NCBI GenBank assembly: GCA_947460875.1 | Contig: CANHGR010000005.1 | Location: 1-64,000 of the forward strand | Reading direction: 5' to 3' | DNA: 64,000 nucleotides | Source of the DNA: Sphingobacteriaceae bacterium | Lineage (GTDB): Bacteria > Bacteroidota > Bacteroidia > Sphingobacteriales > Sphingobacteriaceae | Shown here: positions 47,168 through 47,917 of the stretch, in pieces | Position numbering within the stretch: the first letter of the stretch is position 1 | Layout: each line of letters begins with the position of its first letter | The notes under the pieces: model-generated | Seen by the model: the letters and a program-made list of their open reading frames with translations, nothing else | Databases searched by the model: none | Told to the model about the DNA's origin: nothing | Position numbers and translations under genes: made by a program

Positions 47168-47230
47168 GTAGGCAAAGGGTTTGGGGTGTAAGGTTTAGGG
47201 TCTGACGAAAAGAGAGCAAAGAATAAGGAG

Positions 47231-47320
47231 CAAGGAATAAGGCCTAGGCATTCGTAGATTTGGGCGGTTGTTTAAAATTAGTTATCCGATGAACTAAGTT
47301 CATCGGATAACGTGTCTCAA
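47231..47320. repeat. Palindromic repeat, copy A
   Basis: First copy of a repeat matching copy B (offset exactly +519) at about 67 of 90 positions, with no gaps. It contains a perfect 15-1-15 palindrome, GTTATCCGATGAACT / AGTTCATCGGATAAC (47281-47311). It follows the ybbP stop by 63 nt in an A/G-rich stretch and precedes the stop of the 81-residue gene. It could act as a terminator or hairpin RNA, or be a MITE remnant. Confidence 0.8.
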
Positions 47321-47344
47321 ACCCGCGTCTAGGGCTTTGTATAA

Positions 47345-47590
47345 TCAATATTTAACGAATTTTTTACTTTTCCTTAAAAGGCCGAAATAAATAAAAAAAC
47401 CGAGAATCGGCAGTAATGAGACAAAAAACAGATAATTAACTTTTTCCCTTTTTGTAAGGGCATTAGATCTAACAATGCTAAAAATTGGTGCGATTATAAC
47501 GCTGAGTATTAGAAAGAGAATCGCGTAAGCAAAAAAAAATCCATAAAATCCTTCATTATCATTTACATAAAAAATCAACGAAAGCGTCAT
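47345..47590 (-). CDS. Small two-helix membrane protein, 81 residues
   Basis: Two hydrophobic segments (about 15-42 and 52-70; VNYLFFVSLLPILGFFIYFG) joined by a basic loop (SNALTKREK), ending Lys-rich. The second helix resembles the PLDc_N-type membrane segment. No catalytic residues. It is flanked on both sides by copies of the same repeat, in the same orientation, which raises the possibility that this segment was inserted or duplicated as a unit. Start ATG at 47590. Confidence 0.6.
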   Translation of the reverse strand: MTLSLIFYVNDNEGFYGFFFAYAILFLILSVIIAPIFSIVRSNALTKREKVNYLFFVSLLPILGFFIYFGLLRKSKKFVKY

Positions 47591-47742
47591 TTTTTTGTGT
47601 TTAATCCTAAAATGAGAGCGTTTGGAATTGTAGTTGCAATTTAAATAAAATACTCAATCCAAAGATAAATTCTTTACACTCATTAATCGAATAAGAAGAA
47701 AGGAACAAGGGCTAAGGGCTAAGGCTTTTGAAGAAGATAGAA

Positions 47743-47860
47743 CAAGGAGTAAAGAATAAGGACTAGGCATTCGTGGAATTGAATAGTTTGTTGAACTTAG
47801 CGATCTGATGAACTTAATTCATCAGATCACGTGTTTTACGACTAGTGTCTTTACTCCTTG
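47743..47860. mobile_element. MITE-like element, repeat copy B
   Basis: 118 bp bounded by perfect 13-bp inverted repeats, CAAGGAGTAAAGA (47743-47755) and TCTTTACTCCTTG (47848-47860). Inside is an 11-bp palindrome GATCTGATGAA / TTCATCAGATC (47802-47828, 5-nt loop) that aligns with the palindrome of copy A. Copies A and B differ by a C:G to T:A pair in the stem, a compensated change. No transposase is present, so it would be non-autonomous; it could also be a structured RNA. Confidence 0.6.
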
Positions 47861-47917
47861 CTCCCTTTCCCTATTCCCTTAATTAGCTGTATTTTTACCA
47901 TCAATAGCTGACGCAAC

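What the first reader, a model, noticed from the sequence alone, without database searches (positions are those of the whole stretch)
47231..47860. Two-copy repeat with a covarying stem brackets a small membrane gene
Copies at 47231-47320 and 47750-47839 align without gaps at about 67 of 90 positions (hand count). Both centre on a palindrome with the same spacing to the shared CTAGGCATTCGT block. Within the stem a C:G pair in copy A is T:A in copy B, so the pairing is kept while the sequence changed. Copy B also has perfect 13-bp terminal inverted repeats (47743-47755/47848-47860). The copies are in direct orientation on each side of the 81-residue membrane gene. This fits a MITE family, a REP-like element with selected structure, or a small mobile unit carrying a cargo gene.
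Basis: partly seen in the sequence, partly recalled or inferred. Interest (0 to 1): 0.65.

Follow-up and report, generated by a model that had tools for sequence, protein, structure and literature searches.

The report
Dispersed REP hairpins with repeat arms
The two repeats are members of a scattered family of short DNA hairpins that sit mostly just after genes; related hairpins in other bacteria of the family flank a REP-type transposase gene, so this looks like a new local family of a known kind of bacterial repeat, and the small gene between the copies is probably a bystander.

Summary
The interpretation needs re-drawing.

The palindrome is a dispersed REP-like hairpin, with 15 copies found in this 2.2 Mb genome. 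A related 31-nt hairpin occurs in other genera of the family, often in clusters. In three other places it flanks a REP-associated tyrosine transposase (RAYT): intact on an IMG/VR contig, frameshifted in G116, and a remnant at the same locus in G157. Covariation is strong across loci and genera. It also occurs in place: at one orthologous site the same C:G to T:A swap separates two species.

The hairpins lie mostly after stop codons and rarely between divergent genes.

The 81-residue gene shows no sign of being cargo. No empty-site test was possible. Best reading: relics of RAYT-spread REPs, now 3'-end hairpins. Transposition and RNA function are inferred. Whether this genome still has a RAYT is open, because the one search made (Pfam Y1_Tnp) misses this RAYT type.

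The parts
47213..47334 (+). copy A: heptamer-armed element (purine array 47213-47243, conserved CTAGGCATTCGT block, REP hairpin, weak right end CGTCTAGGGC)
47281..47311 (.). REP-like palindrome of copy A, GTTATCCGATGAAC-TAA-GTTCATCGGATAAC, 33 nt beyond the 81-aa gene's stop; terminator-like on the minus strand
47693..47880 (+). copy B: heptamer-armed element (purine arrays 47693-47762, block, REP hairpin, pyrimidine array 47848-47880)
47800..47830 (.). REP-like palindrome of copy B, GCGATCTGATGAA-CTTAA-TTCATCAGATCAC
47743..47755 (+). left 13-bp inverted repeat of copy B, part of the (AARGARY)n array
47848..47860 (+). right 13-bp inverted repeat of copy B (complementary pyrimidine heptamers)
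47345..47590 (-). 81-aa small membrane protein, weakly PLDc_N-like (below Pfam cut-off), distant relatives of about 80 aa in genus g22; bystander rather than cargo

Best explanation
Copies A and B each carry one REP (repetitive extragenic palindrome), a 31-nt hairpin with core stem ATCCGATGA/TCATCGGAT. Shown: the hairpin is dispersed (15 copies) in this genome, recurs across the family, covaries, lies mainly downstream of genes, and in other genomes flanks a RAYT gene. Inferred: it was spread by a RAYT acting on the folded single strand, and the copies here are ageing descendants. Many then serve as shared 3'-end RNA hairpins (mRNA 3' stabiliser or weak bidirectional terminator), which keeps the stem paired while its letters drift. 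In this genome some REPs, A and B among them, sit inside a larger repeat whose arms are degenerate heptamer arrays, presumably grown by replication slippage. The gene between A and B is bracketed by coincidence or local duplication, not carried as cargo.
For: Dispersal: R2 finds 13 own palindromes at E up to 0.04, besides C4:159274 (set aside, conserved hairpin of another kind) and C8:85312 (inside a gene), plus C11:40339 with a long loop and C18:14954 at E 1.2, making 15. Family spread: R2 at E <= 0.001 in 26 of 151 genomes, 10 of 25 genera, with clusters in G033, G116, G070; some of these hits are other hairpins (L325-L331). Covariation: first 8 own copies, 97.9% of cells paired, 4 of 12 pairs with double changes, 0/500 shuffles; 15 hairpins from several genera and RAYT flanks, 98.3% paired, 27 double-change cells against 8.8 in shuffles. 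In-place compensation: at one orthologous convergent site G126 has ATCC-GATGA/TCATC-GGAT, G161 ATCT-GATGA/TCATC-AGAT, G108 a further C:G to G:C swap. RAYT link: L375, intact 191-aa RAYT (NCBIfam REP_Tyr_transpos E 4e-12, below its cut-off; MPNHFHL, YIHQNP) with hairpins 24 bp upstream and 9 bp downstream; L363, frameshifted RAYT with hairpin clusters on both sides; L368, remnant plus hairpin. Position: of 39 sites pooled over genomes 18 are convergent, 18 co-directional, 3 divergent, against 22/67/33 own gaps (Fisher p 0.001 and 0.014).
Against: No RAYT was found in this genome, though the only whole-genome search used a Pfam model that is weak for this RAYT type. In the own genome alone the positional bias is not significant (p 0.15 and 0.19); the background comes from crude ORF calls in the own genome only, and A and B count as co-directional unless the 81-aa gene is accepted (then convergent and divergent). 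B does not lie after a stop codon. The usual GTAG foot is missing. R2 was trained on 8 own copies, so the later hits lean toward its structure. Compensatory change can also arise by template switching between the arms without selection. The G116 and G157 RAYTs are one orthologous locus, so independent RAYT associations number two.
Confidence: 0.75

Rival explanations
1. Ordinary intrinsic terminators that look alike because they were copied locally or share composition; no REP history.
For: Many hairpins lie 2-25 nt after stop codons; copy A is followed by TAATTTT on the minus strand; the G108 orthologue is flanked by A- and T-tracts that extend its stem like a bidirectional terminator.
Against: The same stem recurs in about 15 loci here and in several genera, some in tandem clusters and around RAYT genes; most solo copies lack a T-tract; B and C1:60304 are not after a stop.
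Confidence: 0.14
2. Classical MITE with terminal inverted repeats, moved by a DDE transposase, possibly with the 81-aa gene as cargo.
For: Inverted arms, about 10 armed copies, and a second close pair (C2:53925 and C2:54678) that also brackets one gene.
Against: Arms are heptamer arrays of variable length found at unrelated loci and in genera without this core; no target duplication was noticed by eye (not tested systematically); own copies match each other at 78-89% over limited lengths; the bracketed genes are unrelated.
Confidence: 0.06
3. Binding site of a dimeric DNA-binding protein (dyad), conserved as DNA.
For: Near-perfect dyad symmetry and an almost invariant inner core GATGA/TCATC.
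Against: Pairs 1, 3, 6 and 7 swap as pairs, including to the reverse orientation; the half-site alone is not enriched (8 against 6.4 expected in 304 kb).
Confidence: 0.05

Closest known systems
REPs of the Bacteroidetes TnpA-Y1 subclass 2.6 (RAYT group 5), 'atypical secondary structures' (PMC6006769)
   Same: Hairpins flank a RAYT with NH-x-H and YIHQNP motifs and have copies elsewhere
   Different: The 31-nt sequence and its heptamer-armed form were not found in the papers searched; no RAYT found in the window's own genome
GTAG- and CGTC-tagged REPs (PMC3733652)
   Same: 20-40 bp palindromes, mainly in convergent and unidirectional gaps, downstream of genes
   Different: No unpaired GTAG or CGTC tag; the outer GTC/GAC letters are paired
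Heptamer simple-sequence repeats (PMC4679880, PMC4692102)
   Same: 7-bp degenerate arrays in intergenic DNA
   Different: Here often arranged as inverted purine-then-pyrimidine pairs around a core
BrickBuilt MITE of Porphyromonas gingivalis (PMC4596501)
   Same: Bacteroidetes intergenic repeat that combines tandem units and small inverted ends
   Different: 23-bp units, restricted to P. gingivalis, no sequence relation seen

Membership tests
REP (general) | 20-65 bp palindrome repeated in extragenic DNA of one genome | tested here: met
   15 copies of about 31 nt; one look-alike inside a gene set aside. Copy number is far below the >100 usual for REPs in Proteobacteria
REP (general) | mainly downstream of genes, in convergent or unidirectional gaps | tested here: met
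   36 of 39 sites pooled over own genome and relatives, p 0.014 for lack of divergent gaps; own genome alone not significant
RAYT-associated REP | copies flank a RAYT gene | tested here: met
   met for the family in L375, L363, L368; not seen in the window's genome
RAYT-associated REP | RAYT present in the same genome | tested here: inconclusive
   Y1_Tnp absent at E <= 0.001, but that model scores an intact RAYT of this type only E 0.0011; tblastn of about 438 kb of own loci (overlapping) found none
GTAG-tagged REP | GTAG/GTGG tetranucleotide at the 5' foot | tested here: not met
   seen at one site only (C2:95529) on reading the flanks
CGTC-tagged REP | unpaired CGTC at one end, CCA tail | tested here: not met
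   outer GTC/GAC letters are paired
TnpA-Y1 subclass 2.6 (the RAYT in L375) | NH[LIV]H and YIH[QN]NP signature, about 179 aa | tested here: inconclusive
   YIHQNP and 191 aa fit; the first motif is NHFH, outside [LIV]; no tree was made
MITE | fixed terminal inverted repeats and target-site duplication | tested here: inconclusive
   arms differ in length and sequence between copies; target duplication looked for by eye only; no empty site held
PLDc_N domain protein (81-aa gene) | Pfam PF13396 above its cut-off | tested here: not met
   14.5 bits against 23.3

The most novel reading that the evidence does not exclude
REP hairpins and slippage-grown heptamer arms combine into a composite element that spreads as a unit and is repeatedly turned into a bidirectional 3'-end signal, with two close pairs of copies each bracketing one gene.
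Probability: 0.15. Interest if true: 0.55.

Novelty: new member of a known kind. Interest (0 to 1): 0.42.

Why it matters
RAYTs of the Bacteroidetes type were reported to be flanked only by 'atypical secondary structures' (PMC6006769). Here is a concrete 31-nt consensus, its covariation, an orthologous site where compensatory change is visible between species, and an intact RAYT flanked by it, which makes binding and cleavage directly testable. It also documents purine-then-pyrimidine heptamer pairs as recurrent hairpin-forming intergenic repeats in several genera of this family.

Tried and rejected
Uptake-sequence idea: half-site not enriched. Known RNA family: Rfam gave only mir-3 at E 0.21, far below gathering. 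Plasmid relatives of copy A: none. Plasmid relatives of the RAYT N-part: none. Exact GTCATCSGATGA hairpin pattern in viral contigs: none. DNA match of copy B in 60 relatives: none outside the own genome. Orthologous empty site: the gene order after the permease is not kept in the 29 relatives read, and the genome-contig scan with the DUF1275 protein returned other bacteria, none evidently of this genus. R1 matches in relatives are carried by the heptamer arms, not the core. C4:159274 and C8:85312 were set aside. First hairpin coordinates for some copies were wrong and were corrected.

Full report
The window is part of a 2.21 Mb genome, 99% complete, with no other species of its genus held.

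Copies in the genome. BLAST and a covariance model from five armed copies give about ten heptamer-armed relatives and several palindromes without arms. A palindrome model raises the palindromes to 15 after setting two aside: C8:85312 lies inside a gene, and C4:159274 matches a hairpin with a T-tract kept at what looks like the same site in genus g14. Two armed relatives, C4:174367 and C12:44113, have degraded palindromes, and some have none.

Structure. In the first eight copies 97.9% of cells pair and four of twelve pairs show double changes; no shuffle reaches this. With 15 own sequences, one of them C4:159274, the picture holds, with the caution that the later ones were found by the model. 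In an alignment with other genera and RAYT flanks 98.3% pair with 27 double-change cells. At one orthologous convergent site the hairpins of G126 and G161 differ by C:G to T:A, as A and B do, and G108 by a C:G to G:C swap. Selection on structure, or template switching between the arms, could each produce this.

Origin. The model finds the hairpin in 26 of 151 family genomes, often clustered. In G116 a frameshifted RAYT lies between upstream and downstream clusters of hairpins; G157 keeps a remnant at the same place beside pgk. An IMG/VR contig carries an intact 191-aa RAYT with hairpins 24 bp before and 9 bp after it. NCBIfam matches these proteins to REP-associated tyrosine transposases, below its cut-off. 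The signature resembles the Bacteroidetes subclass 2.6 of PMC6006769, whose flanking structures were called atypical. The REPs here lack GTAG and CGTC tags (PMC3733652). A RAYT in the window's genome was not found, but the search was not sensitive enough to exclude one.

Arms. The inverted repeats of copy B are (AARGARY)n heptamers. The 19-nt pattern occurs 8 times here, 70 and 56 times in two g22 genomes, and rarely or never in most others. In the g22 listings I count ten pairs that run purine then pyrimidine within 250 bp and none the other way; 400 kb of g22 stretches held no pair, so they add nothing to this count. Period-7 repeats of many sequences are frequent in G064. Heptamer arrays are a known class (PMC4679880, PMC4692102). 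The arms and the palindrome are separate layers: relatives' armed elements do not share the palindrome, and most own palindromes have no arms.

Function. Sites lie mostly downstream of genes and seldom in divergent gaps, pooled over genomes; about half are within 25 nt of a stop codon. Copy A folds with a T-rich tail on the minus strand, where the 81-aa gene ends. This fits a 3'-end hairpin; no RNA data were available. The 81-aa protein has only weak relatives, and nothing ties it to the repeats beyond position.

Noticed in passing
L375:1780-3930: Intact RAYT with REP hairpins lies between the end of a cas9-like gene and cas1/cas2-like genes on an IMG/VR contig, with further hairpins after the cas9-like and after the cas2-like gene (gene names by eye, not by profile search).
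   Followed up: partly
L307:515-545 (G000:C4:159274) and L325-L331: Hairpin AACATCCGGAGATTT..AAATCTTCGGATGTT with T-tract, shared with several g14 genomes at what looks like the same site; probably a conserved terminator, not a REP.
   Followed up: partly
L188 and L182 (G000:C2:53925-54798): A second close pair of heptamer-armed elements brackets one gene.
   Followed up: partly
L276-L285 (G064): Period-7 degenerate repeats of many different sequences: 24 islands at lag 7, none at lags 4-6, 8 and 9.
   Followed up: partly
L365:13050-14250 (G070): Tandem cluster of REP hairpins interspersed with another palindrome, ATCCTGAA..TTCAGGATGACG, resembling a CGTC-type REP.
   Followed up: no
L373:3412-4130 (G012): Another RAYT-like gene (NHVH, YLHQNP) near a different palindrome (TTTAAGAG..CTCTTAAA).
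   Followed up: no
L187 (G000:C1:167747): Armed element with its ends inside out: pyrimidine array first, then purine array.
   Followed up: no
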